Assembly (NCBI GenBank): GCA_030526245.1 | Contig: JAUNDD010000005.1 | Location: forward strand, 23,782-75,152 | Length of the DNA: 51,371 nucleotides | From: Lachnospiraceae bacterium | Lineage (GTDB): Bacteria > Bacillota > Clostridia > Lachnospirales > Lachnospiraceae | Reading direction: 5' to 3' | In this document: positions 1 through 51,371 of the stretch, in pieces | Numbering within the stretch: position 1 is the first letter of the stretch | Layout: each line of letters opens with the position of its first letter | Made by a program: the position numbers and the translations under genes | The notes under the pieces: model-generated | The model's input: the letters and a program-made list of their open reading frames with translations, nothing else | What the model was told of the DNA's origin: nothing | Databases searched by the model: none

Positions 1-52
1 CCGCGACCTCCACCTTGGCAAGGTGGCGTACTACCAACTGTACTACTGTCGC
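1..52 (-). tRNA. tRNA-Gly(GCC), 3' part cut by window edge
   Basis: This is the 5' portion of a tRNA whose 3' end lies off the left edge of the window. Read on the minus strand it matches the complete tRNA-Gly at 82-153 base for base over 52 positions, including the anticodon loop TTGCCAA. The pair forms a tandem duplication with a 29-bp spacer. Confidence 0.9.
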
Positions 53-81
53 ATTTTTCTTTTGTCTCTCTTTCGAGAAGA

Positions 82-153
82 GCGACAGACGGGACTCGAA
101 CCCGCGACCTCCACCTTGGCAAGGTGGCGTACTACCAACTGTACTACTGTCGC
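82..153 (-). tRNA. tRNA-Gly(GCC)
   Basis: A complete 72-nt cloverleaf on the minus strand. The acceptor stem pairs GCGACAG with CTGTCGC, the anticodon stem CCACC/GGTGG closes the loop TTGCCAA (anticodon GCC, plus-strand 118-120), and the T-arm carries GGTTCGAGTCC. CCA is not encoded. It is the upstream member of a tandem pair with the partial copy at 1-52. Confidence 0.97.
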
Positions 154-376
154 ATTCATCCATCTCAGAGGTGTTATCTCTGACGGACGCTGATTATAAT
201 ACCGCAGGCCGAGCCGAATGTCAAGCATGAATTTCCCGAATTTCCTGCATGTTTTTTCTCATGCATATTCCGCGGTTTCCCGCCGTTTTTTCGTCCAGGC
301 CAGGAAGGCAGGATAGCCCTGAATGACTGCCCTGCCTTCTGCGCACATACGGTCACGCCGTCAGGCAGACCGTTTA

Positions 377-2508: not shown

Positions 2509-2548
2509 CAAAAAAGTCCGGGCACACCTGTTACGTGTGTGCCCAGAC
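2509..2548 (-). terminator. Intrinsic terminator after methyltransferase gene
   Basis: On the minus strand a stem GTCTGGGCACAC / GTGTGCCCGGAC closes a short loop and is followed by TTTTTT. It lies downstream of the minus-strand methyltransferase gene ending at 2855 and upstream of purO. Confidence 0.85.
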
Positions 2549-2854
2549 GGTCGGCTCTTTCTAAGGATCCGCGTCCAGCTGCATCGCTCACAGCTTCCTC
2601 ACGCGATCCGATATGCTCCCCTGCAGTTCTCTGCCTTGACCAATACCTTCCTCTTCTCCCGGGCACGTCAATTTCCGTCAGTCGCATATCTGTTTTCTAT
2701 CATACTGTCCCATCCGGGAAAAAGCAAGGGTCATTCGTCACAAATCAGATTTGTTCAGACCGGCCTTTCCTGTTCAGCCCGCACAATTCCTGTCATTCCA
2801 TCCCGGAGCTTTGAACTCTGCACGGTCTTAAAATCGCCACACCGGCCACGCTCT
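2549..2854. other. Intergenic stretch with no gene seen
   Basis: About 300 bp between the terminator and the stop codon of the methyltransferase gene. Plus-strand reading frames here start without ribosome-binding sites and resemble nothing I recognise. I see no RNA gene or clear repeat. Confidence 0.5.
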
Positions 2855-9970: not shown

Positions 9971-10066
9971 GCACCGTTTTTTAGCGAGCAAAGCACCTTG
10001 TGCTTCGCGAGCTAAAGTGCACCGTTTTTTAGTGAGCAAAGCACTTTGTGCTTCGCGAGCAAAAAT
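9971..10066. repeat. 48-bp tandem repeat, two units
   Basis: Two units (9971-10018 and 10019-10066), each beginning GCACCGTTTTTTAG, then GAGCAAAGCAC, TTGTGCTTCGCGAGC. Each unit can fold into a GCAC/GTGC hairpin. Part of the motif continues at 10100-10112 (AGTGCAAAGCACTTTT). It lies between codY and its distal terminator. Confidence 0.8.
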
Positions 10067-15604: not shown

Positions 15605-15808
15605 ACAGTACACTTACTGTCCCGCAGATCTTTCTGCTGTTGAATATCAACCCGGTTCGCATCACCTTTTTCATTTGCCGGTGTGCGATCCTGCTCAGCT
15701 TTTTCTTTAATTTACAACATCCTGTGTTCGATGTTGCCAAAGTATAGCATTCGCCACAAAAGCTAGTCAAGCCTAACATGGATTGGTCGCATGCACCCCT
15801 GGTTCTAC

Positions 15809-15881: not shown

Positions 15882-15887
15882 TACAAC

Positions 15888-15950
15888 CCTCGGGATTTTG
15901 CCGCATACGCGGCAAAACGCCTCGCGGAATCGAACTGCCTGAACTGTAAC
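15888..15950 (+). repeat. Repeat R1, intact copy
   Basis: A 63-bp element that begins CCTCGGG, holds the perfect hairpin TTTTGCCGC-atac-GCGGCAAAA, then CGCCTCGCGGAATCGAAC, and ends TGCCTGAACTGTAAC. The copies at 21684-21746 and 24213-24275 have the same length and differ at only a few positions. Confidence 0.85.
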
Positions 15951-21586: not shown

Positions 21587-21683
21587 ATACCTCTCCCAAT
21601 CATGATCTGCTCTTACGCTGCTTCACAACCATTTTCTGTCTATTATAGCCTGTTCGGTCCGGGAAATCCACTTTTCTTGTAAG

Positions 21684-21746
21684 CCTCGGGATTTTGCCGC
21701 ATACGCGGCCAAACGTCTCGCGGAATCGAACCGCCTGAACTGTAAC
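21684..21746 (+). repeat. Repeat R1, intact copy
   Basis: A 63-bp copy from CCTCGGG to CTGTAAC with hairpin TTTGCCGC-atac-GCGGCCAAA. It lies in the 322-bp space between the tsf terminator and the transglutaminase-like gene, next to a direct 15-bp duplication GCGCAGCCATATGA (21805-21832). Confidence 0.85.
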
Positions 21747-24173: not shown

Positions 24174-24212
24174 GCCCTTTTTTCATCTCATAAAAAATCT
24201 TCGGTTACAGCT

Positions 24213-24275
24213 GTTACAGTTCAGGCAGTTCGATTCCGCGAGGTGTTTTTCCGCGTATGCGGCAAAATCCCGAGG
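24213..24275 (-). repeat. Repeat R1, intact copy (reverse orientation)
   Basis: A 63-bp copy in opposite orientation to those at 15888 and 21684. On the minus strand it runs from CCTCGGG through TTTTGCCGC-atac-GCGGAAAAA and CCTCGCGGAATCGAAC to CTGAACTGTAAC. It lies 60 bp past the 3' end of the ABC permease gene. Confidence 0.85.
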
Positions 24276-24335
24276 GCTGCAGGCCGCCCGCTGCTATCCA
24301 CCAGGCGAACGGTCAGATCCGGCTCTGCATTCTCC

Positions 24336-31797: not shown

Positions 31798-31887
31798 TAT
31801 GTGGATCCGTCACTTGTCGCATTCTATATGAAATGGATACTGCGGCTGCATGACACGTCCGGATACCGGACGTTTATCCTCTGTTAC

Positions 31888-31949
31888 CCTCGGGAATTTC
31901 CGCGGATACAGAAAAACACTTCGCGGTTTCAAACCATCCGAACTGTGAC
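31888..31949 (+). repeat. Repeat R1, degenerate copy at aspS stop codon
   Basis: A 62-bp stretch that keeps CCTCGGG, CCGCGGATAC, AAAACAC, TTCGCGG, CGAACTGTGAC in R1 order but has lost the perfect hairpin. Its last base is the last base of the aspS coding region, whose stop codon falls at 31949-31951. Confidence 0.6.
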
Positions 31950-40995: not shown

Positions 40996-41117
40996 CCAAC
41001 CGTCCTGGTGCCTCTCCTCTTTCAGTAATTTTACACAGTTTTTACATCTCCTGTTTATACAAGAGTGCTGAGGAGCCTGCCTCCTGAACCATTTCTAAGC
41101 GATAAAGTTCAGGCACT

Positions 41118-41338
41118 GCTCCCGTCCAGATCCAACGCTCGCTGAGTTGGTTGCGCCCCCTCGCTTTAGCTCGGCGGCAAGACGTCGGAGCCATTAGAGT
41201 CACGAACTGCGTTCGTGAGGGCTCCTCCTGTCAACGCTGCGTCGAGCTAACGCCAACTACGACCATATATAAAATGCTCGGGGTGAGGCCCTCGCATTTT
41301 GGTCTCCGTAGGCGTGGATCTCTCCTCCGCTAAAAGCG
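41118..41338 (+). repeat. Repeat R2, copy A (221-bp structured element)
   Basis: A 221-bp stretch aligning without gaps to 51151-51371 with seven mismatches (97% identity by hand count). It is rich in nested pairing: CCAAC/GTTGG; GGAGCC (41187-41192) with GGCTCC (41220-41225) enclosing CACGAAC-tgc-GTTCGTG; and a long final arm pairing ACGC, CTACG, ACC and AAATGC (41250-41277) with GCATTT, GGT, CGTAG and GCGT (41294-41315). It lies upstream of the Gx-apbE-rnf block and outside its leader. Short reading frames inside are not conserved as protein. Confidence 0.9.
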
Positions 41339-41444
41339 CCTCTGAAATGCGAGCTTTTGGATACTGGAGCAGTTCGCTGCCAGCTTCCTCCACCCGCTTC
41401 TTGCATGGTTTCCCAAATCATGTTACAGTAATAGACATGTTAGA

Positions 41445-43715: not shown

Positions 43716-45059
43716 ATGAACATCAAAACATTCAAAGGAGGTATCCATCCGGAGGAATGTAAGGAAATGTCCTTAGGCACCCCGGTTGAGCGGTATCTTC
43801 CTCAGGGAGATCTGATCTTCCCTCTTAATCAGCATATCGGCAAGCCGGCACGTCCGGTAGTTGCGGTGGGTGACAAGGTTCTGGCCGGTCAGCTCATCGC
43901 GGAGGCAGATGGCTTTATTTCCGCCAACATCGTTTCGTCCTGCTCCGGTACCGTTAAGGCCATCGAGCCGCGCAATACCGCTGCCGGTCCGAGAGTCCAG
44001 TGTATCGTCATCGAGAACGACGGCGAATACACCCTGGCAGAAGGTGTCGGTCAGGAAAAGTCTCCCCAGGAGCTTTCTAATAATGAGATCATTGCTGCCG
44101 TTAAAAATGCCGGCGTTGTCGGCATGGGCGGTGCAGGCTTCCCCACCAACGTCAAGCTGATGCCCAAGGATGCCGAAGCCATCGACTACATCATCGCCAA
44201 CGGCTGTGAGTGTGAACCCTACATCACCTGTGACGATCGCCTGATGCAGGAAGAAAACCGCGCGATCATCGAAGGTATGAAGCTGCTGCTTCGTCTCTTC
44301 CCCAACGCCAAGGGTGTGATCGCCATCGAAGACAACAAGCCGGAGGCCATCAAGGCCATGGAGGCTATGTGCATCGGCGAGAGCCAGCTGTATGTGCAGC
44401 CGGTCATGACCAAGTATCCCCAGGGCGGTGAGCGTAACCTGATCTCGGTAGTAACCGGACGCGACATCAAGGCTGGTCAGCTTCCGGCTGAGGTCGGCAC
44501 CATCGTCTGCAACGTGGCTTCTCTGTATGCGATCTATCAGGCCGCCTGCAAGAACACCCCGCTGATGGAGCGCTTCTTCACCGTGACCGGTGATGCTGTC
44601 AAGAACCCCCGCACGCTGATCGTTAAGCTGGGCACACAGACCCAGGAGCTTCTGGATGCCTGCGGCGGTGTCAAGGAAGGCTGCACCATCAGGAAGGCCC
44701 TCTTCGGCGGTCCCATGATGGGTACTCCTCTCACTGGCCTGGATGTACCGGTATGCAAAAACAACAATGCGCTGACCCTGCTGGCCGTAGATCCGGTGGA
44801 AGAGGCTGAAAAGCAGATGACCGCCTGCATCCGCTGCGGACGCTGTGCCAATGTCTGCCCGGTCCATCTGGTTCCGCAGATGCTGGCCGATGCGGCTGAA
44901 CGCGGCGATTACAAAAAGTGGGAAGCCCTGTACGGCATGGACTGCTTCCAGTGCGGTACCTGTACATGGGTCTGCCCGGCTAAGCGTCCGCTGATGCAGA
45001 TGTTCAAGCAGACCAAGGCTGTTGTTATGGCTATGAAACGCGCTCAGGCAGCGAAATGA
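43716..45059 (+). CDS. rnfC: Rnf complex subunit C
   Basis: A 447-residue subunit that carries the NADH/FMN site and two 4Fe-4S clusters. RnfC segments include TFKGGIHPEECKEMS, the Gly-rich NAGVVGMGGAGFPTNVK, NGCECEPYITCDDRLM and GGPMMGTPL. The cluster motifs are CIRCGRCANVCP and CFQCGTCTWVCP. The start at 43716 has AAGAGGAAATGAT at the right distance; the longer frame from 43596 overlaps the preceding gene and is not used. Its stop overlaps an ATG at 45056, but the next gene's real start is 45074. Confidence 0.97.
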   Translation: MNIKTFKGGIHPEECKEMSLGTPVERYLPQGDLIFPLNQHIGKPARPVVAVGDKVLAGQLIAEADGFISANIVSSCSGTVKAIEPRNTAAGPRVQCIVIENDGEYTLAEGVGQEKSPQELSNNEIIAAVKNAGVVGMGGAGFPTNVKLMPKDAEAIDYIIANGCECEPYITCDDRLMQEENRAIIEGMKLLLRLFPNAKGVIAIEDNKPEAIKAMEAMCIGESQLYVQPVMTKYPQGGERNLISVVTGRDIKAGQLPAEVGTIVCNVASLYAIYQAACKNTPLMERFFTVTGDAVKNPRTLIVKLGTQTQELLDACGGVKEGCTIRKALFGGPMMGTPLTGLDVPVCKNNNALTLLAVDPVEEAEKQMTACIRCGRCANVCPVHLVPQMLADAAERGDYKKWEALYGMDCFQCGTCTWVCPAKRPLMQMFKQTKAVVMAMKRAQAAK

Positions 45060-45073
45060 GGGGAGAGAGTTAC

Positions 45074-46618
45074 ATGAACGAAAATCTTTTTAACATATCC
45101 TCGAATCCTCACTTCAGATCGAGGTTAACCACCGGCAGCGTCATGGGTAATGTGATCATTTCCCTGCTTCCTGCCACTGCATTCGGCATTTACAAATTCG
45201 GCATCCACGCATTCCTGGTCATCGCCCTGTCGATCCTGGCCTGCGAGCTGTCCGAGCTGCTCTTTAATGTCATTGCAAAGAAACCGAACACCCTGACCGA
45301 CGGCAGTGCTGCCGTGACCGGTCTTTTACTGGCACTGTCCCTGTCGCCTTCCGTACCGCTCTACATTCCGGTCATCGGCGGCATCTTCGCCATCCTCGTC
45401 GTTAAGTGCTTCTTCGGCGGTCTTGGCAAGAACTTCATGAACCCGGCTCTGGCAGCCCGCTGCTTCCTGCTGATCTCCTTCGGTACGCAGATGACCAGCT
45501 TTGCCGTTGACGGTGTCAGCTCCGCTACTCCGCTGGCCGCCGCTGCAGCCGGTGAGACCGTAAACGTAGCAGCCATTTATCTTGGCTTCTCCAACAGCGT
45601 CATCGGCGGCAGCGCTCTCGCTCTGCTGATCGGCGGCCTGTATCTGTGGGTGACCGACGGTATCTCTCTGCGGATCCCGGTTTCCACCATTGCTGCCTTC
45701 ACCCTGTTTATGGCTCTGTTCGGCGGTCACGGCTTCGATCCGTCCTACCTGCTGCTGCAGATCTGTGCCGGCGGTATCCTGATGGGTGCTTTCTTCATGG
45801 CAACGGATCCGGTAACCAGCCCGGTTCTGGCAAAGACCCAGATCTTCTACGGTATCATCATCGGTCTTCTGGCCGGTCTGTTCCGTGTGAAGGGCGCTTC
45901 TGCCGACTCCGTCAGCTACTCCATCATCATTGCCAACATGCTGGTACCGTTCCTGGATAAGATCCGGATCCACAAACCGCTTGGCTACTACAATGGTGAA
46001 TATAAGGAAAAGAAATTCCCGACTCAGGCCATCAACCTGCTGGTGATCACCCTGGCTGCCGGCCTGGCACTCAGCGGTGTCTATGCTCTGACCAAGACCA
46101 AGATCGAGGATCAGCAGCTGGCTGCCAATGCCGCTTCCTATCAGGAAGTACTTCCGGAAGCAGCTTCCTTTACTGCTTCGGATGAAGCCAAGGCTGCCAT
46201 CGAAGAGCTGGCCGGTGCTGCTTATAACGAAGCCTCCTTCGGCAAGACCTATGTCAATGCCGCTGTGACCGGTATGGATGAGGCAGACGCTGTTGTCGGT
46301 TACGTCATGTCTGTAACCTCTGCCGATGCATTCGACGGAACGCTTACCGTTTCTGTTGGTATCGACACCGAAGGTACCGTTACCGCCATCGCCTTCACCG
46401 AGCTGAACGAGACCGCCGGCATGGGTATGAATGCCGATAAGCCGGAATTCAAGGAACAGTTCAATGGCCGCAAGGCAGATGAGTTCATTCTCGACAAGGG
46501 CGGCAATGCTTCTGCTGAAAACGAGATCAACTCTGTAACCGGTGCATCCAGAACCTCTGGTGCCGTTGTCAACGCTGTTAACACAGCTCTGGCATTCTAC
46601 CGGGATCATATCGCTTAA
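45074..46618 (+). CDS. rnfDG: RnfD-RnfG fusion protein
   Basis: A 514-residue protein that joins two Rnf subunits usually encoded separately. Residues 1-308 are RnfD: hydrophobic helices, NTLTDGSAAVTGLLLALSL, GKNFMNPALAARCFLL, and the covalent-flavin motif D146-GVSSA-T152. From about 310 (YKEKKFPTQAINLLV) a new transmembrane helix (319-340) and an extracytosolic FMN_bind domain follow, which is RnfG. Its flavinylation motif reads TGASRTS (Ser492 where Thr is usual). A single open frame runs through the junction with no stop or ribosome-binding site. The start at 45074 follows AGGGGAGAGAG. Order rnfC, DG, E, A, B matches the standard C-D-G-E-A-B. Confidence 0.93.
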   Translation: MNENLFNISSNPHFRSRLTTGSVMGNVIISLLPATAFGIYKFGIHAFLVIALSILACELSELLFNVIAKKPNTLTDGSAAVTGLLLALSLSPSVPLYIPVIGGIFAILVVKCFFGGLGKNFMNPALAARCFLLISFGTQMTSFAVDGVSSATPLAAAAAGETVNVAAIYLGFSNSVIGGSALALLIGGLYLWVTDGISLRIPVSTIAAFTLFMALFGGHGFDPSYLLLQICAGGILMGAFFMATDPVTSPVLAKTQIFYGIIIGLLAGLFRVKGASADSVSYSIIIANMLVPFLDKIRIHKPLGYYNGEYKEKKFPTQAINLLVITLAAGLALSGVYALTKTKIEDQQLAANAASYQEVLPEAASFTASDEAKAAIEELAGAAYNEASFGKTYVNAAVTGMDEADAVVGYVMSVTSADAFDGTLTVSVGIDTEGTVTAIAFTELNETAGMGMNADKPEFKEQFNGRKADEFILDKGGNASAENEINSVTGASRTSGAVVNAVNTALAFYRDHIA

Positions 46619-51100: not shown

Positions 51101-51150
51101 CGTGTGCTCCTTTTTTATCATCGTATACTTTTTGAAACAATTCAGATGCA

Positions 51151-51371
51151 GCTCCTGTCCAGATCCAACGCTCGCTGAGTTGGTTGCGCCCCCTCGCTCT
51201 AGCTCGGCGGCAGGACGTCGGAGCCATTAGAGTCACGAACTGCGTTCGTGAGGGCTCCTCCTGTCAACGCTCCGTCAAGCTAACGCCAACTACGACCATA
51301 TATAAAATGCTCGGGATGTGGCCCTCGCATTTTGGTCTCCGTAGGCGTGGATCTCTCCTCCGCTAAAAGCG
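51151..51371 (+). repeat. Repeat R2, copy B (cut by window edge)
   Basis: Direct repeat of 41118-41338: 221 aligned bases, no gaps, seven mismatches. The paired segments described for copy A are all kept. The element runs off the right edge, so its full length is unknown; in copy A a further arm (CTCGCATTT at 41291 with AAATGCGAG at 41345) suggests it extends to at least about 41353. Confidence 0.9.

What the first reader, a model, noticed from the sequence alone, without database searches (positions are those of the whole stretch)
41118..41338. 221-bp highly structured repeat (R2) present twice, 10 kb apart, on either side of the Rnf block
Two gapless copies (41118-41338 and 51151-51371+) share 214 of 221 bases. 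All major stems are kept: GGAGCC/GGCTCC around CACGAAC-tgc-GTTCGTG, and a multi-part final arm. The seven differences fall mainly outside those stems. The two reading frames inside change amino acids freely, so selection seems to act on structure, not protein. No transposase lies near either copy. It could be a non-coding RNA family, a miniature mobile element or a recombination site that moved the Gx-apbE-rnf block.
Basis: partly seen in the sequence, partly recalled or inferred. Interest (0 to 1): 0.75.

Follow-up and report, generated by a model that had tools for sequence, protein, structure and literature searches.

The report
Jumping DNA repeat carrying RNA cassette
The repeated stretch is the inner part of a small jumping-type DNA element scattered through this gut bacterium's genome, and its most structured third is a folded RNA element, listed in Rfam as a small RNA, that looks like a cassette slotted into several unrelated repeats and in front of genes.

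Summary
The repeat is real: 214 of 221 bases match. Its limits and its tie to the Rnf block are not: copy 2 is where the contig ends in a dispersed repeat.

The host MAG holds 6 long and 7 short copies plus 6 fragments. They belong to mosaic elements, four of which have both ends TATACTTTTTGAAAC/GTTTCAAAAAGTATA within one mismatch: a modular, MITE-like family. No DDE_3 (IS630-type) transposase was found in this 60%-complete MAG, and no empty site of the outer element was read.

Long and short copies differ by one 85-bp cassette, Rfam RF02987 'GA-cis', on the minus strand. GA-cis is a genuine fold: 19 of 20 pairs change on both sides; covariation 0.580 against 0.139 in shuffles. It is also present or absent at one position of an unrelated repeat in two related species, nested inside another GA-cis, and elsewhere usually lies just before a Shine-Dalgarno and start codon (22 of 27).

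The element class is known. GA-cis as a cassette was not found in the papers searched. What moves GA-cis is unknown.

The parts
41106..41397 (+). Copy 1 of the dispersed element (R2 core plus remnants of both arms); no recognisable terminal inverted repeat on either side
   Evidence: Other copies of the MAG align to query positions 6-297 of 41101-41410; flanks printed
41126..41146 (+). Module R2a of copy 1
   Evidence: Module map
41147..41231 (-). GA-cis cassette of copy 1: the 85 bp that 7 short copies replace by one base; Rfam RF02987 match is 41145-41232
   Evidence: 81.3 bits, gathering score 34.7; presence/absence
41232..41385 (+). Module R2b of copy 1 (shared by long and short copies)
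   Evidence: Module map; 13 copies compared
51124..51138 (+). Left terminal inverted repeat TATACTTTTTGAAAC of copy 2
   Evidence: G000:C7:74905-74919, exact match
51124..51157 (+). Left arm TL of copy 2, continuous with its R2 core
   Evidence: Module map of L006
51159..51179 (+). Module R2a of copy 2
   Evidence: Module map of L006
51180..51264 (-). GA-cis cassette of copy 2; Rfam RF02987 match is 51178-51265. On the same strand the NUDIX start codon lies 79 nt beyond the model-match end
   Evidence: 78.2 bits; distance
51265..51371 (+). Module R2b of copy 2, cut by the end of the contig

Best explanation
R2 is the core of a modular, non-autonomous mobile element (MITE-like) seen only in this species among the genomes searched. 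Its outer ends are the inverted repeat TATACTTTTTGAAAC ... GTTTCAAAAAGTATA. Most likely, and inferred rather than shown, a TA-targeting transposase acting in trans moved the whole unit as DNA into intergenic sites. The interior is a mosaic: base arms (B1, B2), the R2a/R2b core, a second hairpin insert (INS2) and, inside R2 on the minus strand, an 85-bp GA-cis cassette. GA-cis is itself a conserved two-hairpin element found as a discrete unit in unrelated backgrounds in Lachnospiraceae: in at least two unrelated repeats, inside another GA-cis, and most often directly 5' of a Shine-Dalgarno and start codon, where it would be transcribed as part of a leader. Shown: dispersal, inverted ends, module presence/absence, GA-cis covariation, GA-cis position. 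Inferred: the transposase type, and insertion rather than deletion of GA-cis in R2. Unknown: what moves GA-cis and what it does when transcribed.
For: 13 copies plus 6 fragments in the MAG. The 15-nt end sequence with up to 1 mismatch occurs 10 times on each strand of the MAG, against 0 and 2 for the reversed control. Four elements have both ends within one mismatch, TA outermost on both sides and unrelated flanks. Module map: base element with and without R2, R2 with and without GA-cis, base with INS2 in 4 copies. GA-cis covariation 0.580 against 0.139 +/- 0.014 in shuffles, 0 of 500 as high, 0.037-0.126 for slid partners. GA-cis present in 11, partial in 3, absent in 15 of 30 loci of an unrelated repeat in G010/G012, at one position. 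Nested GA-cis in L196. 22 of 27 copies outside these repeats lie within 80 nt 5' of an SD-led start codon, 0 of 27 on the other strand.
Against: No empty site of the outer element was read, so TA duplication is unproven. No DDE_3 gene in the MAG and only 2 of 13 genomes of the genus have one; neither of those loci carries the end sequence within 2 mismatches. Most R2 copies, window copy 1 included, lack one or both ends. In R2 the filled and empty forms differ by an 85-bp for 1-bp exchange without a clear duplication, so deletion is as possible as insertion. In the second repeat the 4-bp flank duplication is exact in only 2 of 11 full copies.
Confidence: 0.7

Rival explanations
1. GA-cis is an ordinary cis-acting leader element (translation, coupling or mRNA stability) without mobility of its own; R2 and the second repeat each captured one by chance and multiplied it.
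For: Strong same-strand position before SD and start codon (22 of 27) is what a cis element shows. In each repeat all filled copies share one site, i.e. one event plus amplification. No enzyme could be linked to GA-cis.
Against: Downstream genes look unrelated by eye (45 outputs). A whole GA-cis interrupts another (L196). At one ABC-exporter junction G010 has GA-cis while the 93%-identical G012 locus, G004, G007 and G011 do not. Capture happened at least twice.
Confidence: 0.4
2. GA-cis hairpins are REP-like units moved by a Y1 (RAYT/IS200-type) transposase.
For: Imperfect hairpin with GGAG at its 5' foot; that REPs have such a foot is recalled, not looked up.
Against: Y1_Tnp occurs in 5 of 8 GA-cis carriers and 10 of 12 non-carriers; G010, with 10 GA-cis matches at 94% completeness, has none. 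No fixed tetranucleotide precedes the copies.
Confidence: 0.06
3. R2 as a whole is a family of non-coding RNA genes kept by selection on structure.
For: Folds somewhat better than shuffles (z -2.49); one third is an Rfam family.
Against: Outside GA-cis no Rfam match; copies are near-identical, private to one of 61 genomes apart from weak partial hits in G012 and G017, truncated at many points and shuffled in modules.
Confidence: 0.05
4. R2 is a recombination site that moved the Gx-apbE-rnf block.
For: Two direct copies 10,033 bp apart around the block.
Against: 13 copies and 6 fragments elsewhere and a contig end at copy 2 make the pair unremarkable.
Confidence: 0.03

Closest known systems
BOX elements of Streptococcus pneumoniae (PMC3049150; abstract and passages read)
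   Same: Modular interspersed repeats with inverted ends and optional inner modules, strong predicted RNA structure, found inserted into one another
   Different: Sequence not compared. Here one optional module is a separately distributed Rfam element with its own typical place before genes
RUP of S. pneumoniae, an IS630-type MITE (PMC2229807, one passage read; also PMC3049150)
   Same: Short non-autonomous repeat, insertions at TA
   Different: RUP ends resemble a resident IS630; no such partner was found here, and TA duplication is unproven
Correia elements (recalled; only search listings seen)
   Same: Long and short forms differing by an internal segment (recalled)
   Different: The segment here is a structured element present in other genera
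Rfam RF02987 GA-cis (Rfam 15; one table line read in PMC11701678)
   Same: 88 bases of each window copy match the full model (81.3 and 78.2 bits)
   Different: Rfam types it 'Gene; sRNA'; here it is an optional cassette in dispersed DNA repeats, and elsewhere mostly a leader before genes

Membership tests
MITE | Short, without a transposase gene of its own | tested here: met
   Complete TIR pairs span 117, 268, 323 and 546 bp; the longest ORFs inside window copy 1 are of about 60-76 codons
MITE | Terminal inverted repeats | tested here: met
   Four elements with both 15-nt ends within one mismatch; most R2 copies have lost one or both ends
MITE | Many dispersed copies with unrelated flanks | tested here: met
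MITE | Target-site duplication | tested here: inconclusive
   TA outermost on both sides in the four complete elements, but TA also belongs to the inverted repeat and no empty site was read
IS630-derived MITE | Related transposon with the same ends in the genome | tested here: not met
   No DDE_3 match in the MAG, which is 60% complete; 2 of 13 genus genomes have one, without these ends
Rfam RF02987 GA-cis | Covariance-model score above the curated threshold | tested here: met
   81.3 and 78.2 bits, threshold 34.7
Rfam RF02987 GA-cis | Conserved two-hairpin structure with compensatory changes | tested here: met
   19 of 20 pairs with changes on both sides in 34 distinct rows; the alignment was fitted to the structure and leans towards it
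REP/RAYT system | Co-occurrence with a Y1 transposase | tested here: not met
   5 of 8 carriers, 10 of 12 non-carriers
BOX element | Sequence of boxA, boxB, boxC | not tested
   No comparison with BOX sequences was run

The most novel reading that the evidence does not exclude
GA-cis is a new class of miniature mobile structured-RNA cassette (about 80-85 nt, beginning AGGAGG and ending near GATAC) that spreads by itself through Lachnospiraceae, lands directly 5' of Shine-Dalgarno sequences so that one stands on each side and the operon stays translatable, and also lands in MITEs and in itself, which then multiply it.
Probability: 0.3. Interest if true: 0.85.

Novelty: new variant of a known kind. 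Interest (0 to 1): 0.52.

Why it matters
It makes an orphan Rfam family testable: a structured element present or absent at single positions in two unrelated repeat families and in front of genes. If GA-cis is mobile, bacteria can receive ready-made 5' leaders by insertion with the Shine-Dalgarno repeated rather than destroyed, and some predicted structured RNAs may be passengers of mobile repeats. It also explains assembly breaks: 8 of the 70 contig ends of this MAG lie in the family or within 18 bp of it (C7, C12, C16, C18, C30 and C34 ends, C31 and C34 starts).

Tried and rejected
Phage or plasmid origin: no match to R2 in the phage or plasmid collections. In viral contigs the R2 and GA-cis patterns gave 0 and the end-repeat pattern gave 1, which shares only 21 bases with an otherwise unrelated virus.

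Spread of R2: of 61 genomes, 3 match at E up to 0.01: the own genome and weak partial hits in G012 (a piece of GA-cis) and G017, E 0.003-0.01.

Transposases: DDE_3 not in the MAG; Y1_Tnp not associated with GA-cis. Other transposase families were not searched.

Target-copying by stem 1 of GA-cis: four loci (L108, L109, L112, L121) repeat the cassette's first 10-16 bases at the next SD, L109 with a one-base gap; most others share little more than AGGAGG. Left unexplained.

A small reading frame AGGAGG-N-ATG occurs in many copies but stops early in L132, L194 and L230 and is absent in R2 (by eye); dropped.

The first alignment gave a model with 5 pairs because variable stems were misplaced; replaced by A3 with a structure written from single-sequence folds. 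A2 was also misaligned and not used for counts.

Twelve had G+C below 58%; I kept 11, all from Lachnospiraceae, Eubacterium, Clostridium or Roseburia records, and dropped L206 (cyanobacterium). The covariance search used 49 chosen sources of those held.

Literature: for GA-cis two searches found one paper, a table line in Rfam 15; the discovery paper is not held. MITE with Lachnospiraceae gave 3 listings, none on such an element by title and abstract start. Searches were listings; a review of prokaryotic MITEs was only searched for terms.

Full report
What is in the window. The two copies align without gaps at 214 of 221 positions and belong to a dispersed family. In the host MAG (1,508,271 bases, 35 contigs, 60% complete) a 245-bp query finds 27 places: 6 long copies (L001-L006); 7 short copies, each as two rows (right parts L007-L013, left parts in 7 further rows); 2 pieces at contig starts (L014, L015); 4 fragments with the left module only (L017, L021, L023, L026); and one weak hit (E 0.09) not counted. 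Eight of 70 contig ends lie in the family or within 18 bp of it, so the true copy number is likely higher, and copy 2 is simply where the assembly stopped. With 13 copies at random about 1.1 neighbouring pairs within 10 kb are expected, so bracketing of the rnf block needs no explanation. The eight neighbouring proteins that I scanned are ordinary: HPr, heptaprenyl diphosphate synthase component I, ApbE, FMN-binding, RnfD-type, an Fe-S (RnfB-type) protein, polysaccharide deacetylase, NUDIX.

The outer element. Left flanks of many copies share TATACTTTTTGAAACAGTTCAGGTGCAGCTCCTG, and right flanks of some run to GTTTCAAAAAGTATA. The 15-mer with at most one mismatch occurs 10 times forward and 10 times reverse in the MAG, against 0 and 2 for the reversed control; in the other 12 genomes of the genus together it occurs 5 times, against 8 for the control. 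Four elements have both ends within one mismatch: C11:18412-18679, C11:27165-27710, C12:44079-44195 and C23:47507-47829. All have TA outermost on both sides and unrelated flanks. A 77-bp element on C10 has 2 and 1 mismatches. Window copy 1 has neither end. TA fits an IS630-type partner as reported for RUP (PMC2229807, one passage), but no empty site was read and no DDE_3 gene was found in the MAG, so that step is inferred.

Modules. Blast of 8 modules onto 39 loci of the MAG gives the order TL - (R2a - [GA] - R2b) - B1 - [INS2] - B2 - TR. The base element exists without R2, with R2, with INS2 (4 copies, one of them also with R2) and in shortened forms. A 268-bp base query has 39 matching stretches. 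INS2 holds a nested hairpin with a CGTAG loop that resembles hairpin 1 of GA-cis by eye; kinship was not tested.

GA-cis in R2. Rfam places GA-cis on the minus strand at 41145-41232 (81.3 bits) and 51178-51265 (78.2 bits), gathering score 34.7. Long copies differ from short ones by this stretch: 85 bp (41147-41231) stand where short copies have one base. In the own genome 9 matches pass the threshold, 6 in R2 and 3 elsewhere. GA-cis presence and R2b variants show all four combinations at 5 sites among 13 copies, so copies have recombined, or the cassette came or went more than once. Which form is ancestral is not settled.

GA-cis elsewhere. In 145 genomes (own plus relatives) 8 match at E up to 1e-4 and 7 pass the threshold, with 10 and 12 matches in two related species, G010 and G012. 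A model built from 9 sequences (7 from named records, 2 from relatives) found 43 matches in 49 chosen sources at E up to 0.01. On that alignment 34 distinct rows give 95.8% paired cells, 19 of 20 pairs with changes on both sides, and a covariation score of 0.580 against 0.139 (sd 0.014; 0 of 500 shuffles) and 0.037-0.126 for slid partners. The alignment leans towards the structure it was fitted to, but single sequences fold the same way unaided: of 10, 8 have z of -3 or below and 2 about -1 (L109, L107). The architecture is AGGAGG, stem 1, stem 2 with a mostly CGNAG loop, a bulge on the 3' side, CGACGA, a second hairpin, then GATAC. G-U cells outnumber A-C cells only 13 to 7, so the strand is argued from position, not from wobble pairs.

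Position. Of 42 distinct copies (weak ones included), 24 have a start codon with an SD-like sequence within 80 nt downstream on the same strand, 1 on the opposite strand. Without the 6 R2 copies (2 and 0) and the 9 copies in the second repeat (0 and 1) it is 22 of 27 against 0 of 27; 19 of the 22 lie at 12-31 nt and three at 42, 65 and 68. The five misses are L137, L108 (first of a tandem pair), L121, L132:2-83 and L034. The two species G010 and G012 share one site (L114, L115), counted twice. In 8 of the 27 a stop codon of an upstream frame of at least 80 codons lies within 20 nt before the cassette. At one ABC-exporter junction G010 reads AAGGT AGGAGG [GA-cis] AGGAGGAAGCGGT ATG; G004 (55% identical protein) reads AAGGT AGGAGG TGCATTATC ATG; G012 (93%), G007 and G011 also lack GA-cis there by eye and by the model. 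A paralogous operon of G010 (L337, 70%) lacks GA-cis where L334 and L335 have it.

A second repeat. In G010 and G012 a different repeat (ends near GTTTTCTGA ... TCAGAAAAC) has 46 and 30 matching stretches, and none in G000 or G006. I read 30 loci of those 76 rows: 11 with full GA-cis, 3 with partial GA-cis (L309, L316, L322), 15 empty at the same position, 1 with another deletion (L332) (a strict pattern counts 13 distinct empty and 5 distinct filled). Empty reads CCAACG|TATGATGAGG; filled reads CCAACG|AGGAGG...GATACAAAACG|TATGATGAGG. AACG stands exactly on both sides in 2 of 11 full copies (L304, L311). All filled copies share one site, so this is one event plus amplification. In L196 a whole GA-cis interrupts the hairpin-2 loop of another, at GAACG|TATGTGAGG, a site much like that of the second repeat.

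Reading. The outer repeat is MITE-like, a known kind; BOX and RUP are the nearest I could check. In the library searched I found no report of GA-cis as a cassette in repeats. Whether GA-cis moves by itself or was captured by each repeat is open: 0.3 for own mobility with SD-proximal landing, 0.4 for capture of a plain cis element. The Y1 idea fails on co-occurrence.

Noticed in passing
window 15885-15950, 21681-21746, 24206-24285 (minus), 31884-31949: Another dispersed hairpin-rich repeat family (CCTCGGGATTTTGCCGC ... CGGAATCGAACTGCCTGAACTGTAAC), two copies 94% alike, an inverted one about 91%, a fourth at 61%.
   Followed up: no
window 9971-10064: Tandem pair of 46-nt hairpin units (GCACCGTTTTTTAGCGAGCAAAGCACC...), 93% alike.
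   Followed up: no
window 1-156: A 55-nt stretch of a tRNA-Gly gene occurs twice, identical, 101 bp apart at the window start.
   Followed up: no
window 2534-2695 and 15615-15708, both minus strand: ZTP riboswitch (43.3 bits) and NiCo riboswitch (43.4 bits) matches in Rfam.
   Followed up: no
window 45056-46618: One open frame joins an RnfD-type membrane domain and an FMN-binding (RnfG-type) domain, a likely RnfD-RnfG fusion.
   Followed up: no
L047:1607-1692, L068:1610-1695, L258:1654-1738, L009:1739-1757: INS2, an 86-bp insert with two hairpins (one with a CGTAG loop like GA-cis hairpin 1) in four copies of the base element, at one position.
   Followed up: partly
L304-L333 (G010, G012): A separate repeat family with inverted ends, 46 and 30 matching stretches in two related species, with and without GA-cis.
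   Followed up: yes
L108, L109, L112, L121: The first 10-16 bases of GA-cis recur at the Shine-Dalgarno of the next gene; unexplained (tandem remnant, duplication or borrowed leader).
   Followed up: partly
L041:32-331 (minus): A T-box leader-like match (74.9 bits, below the gathering score of 93) in the same genome, 1.2 kb from a base element.
   Followed up: no
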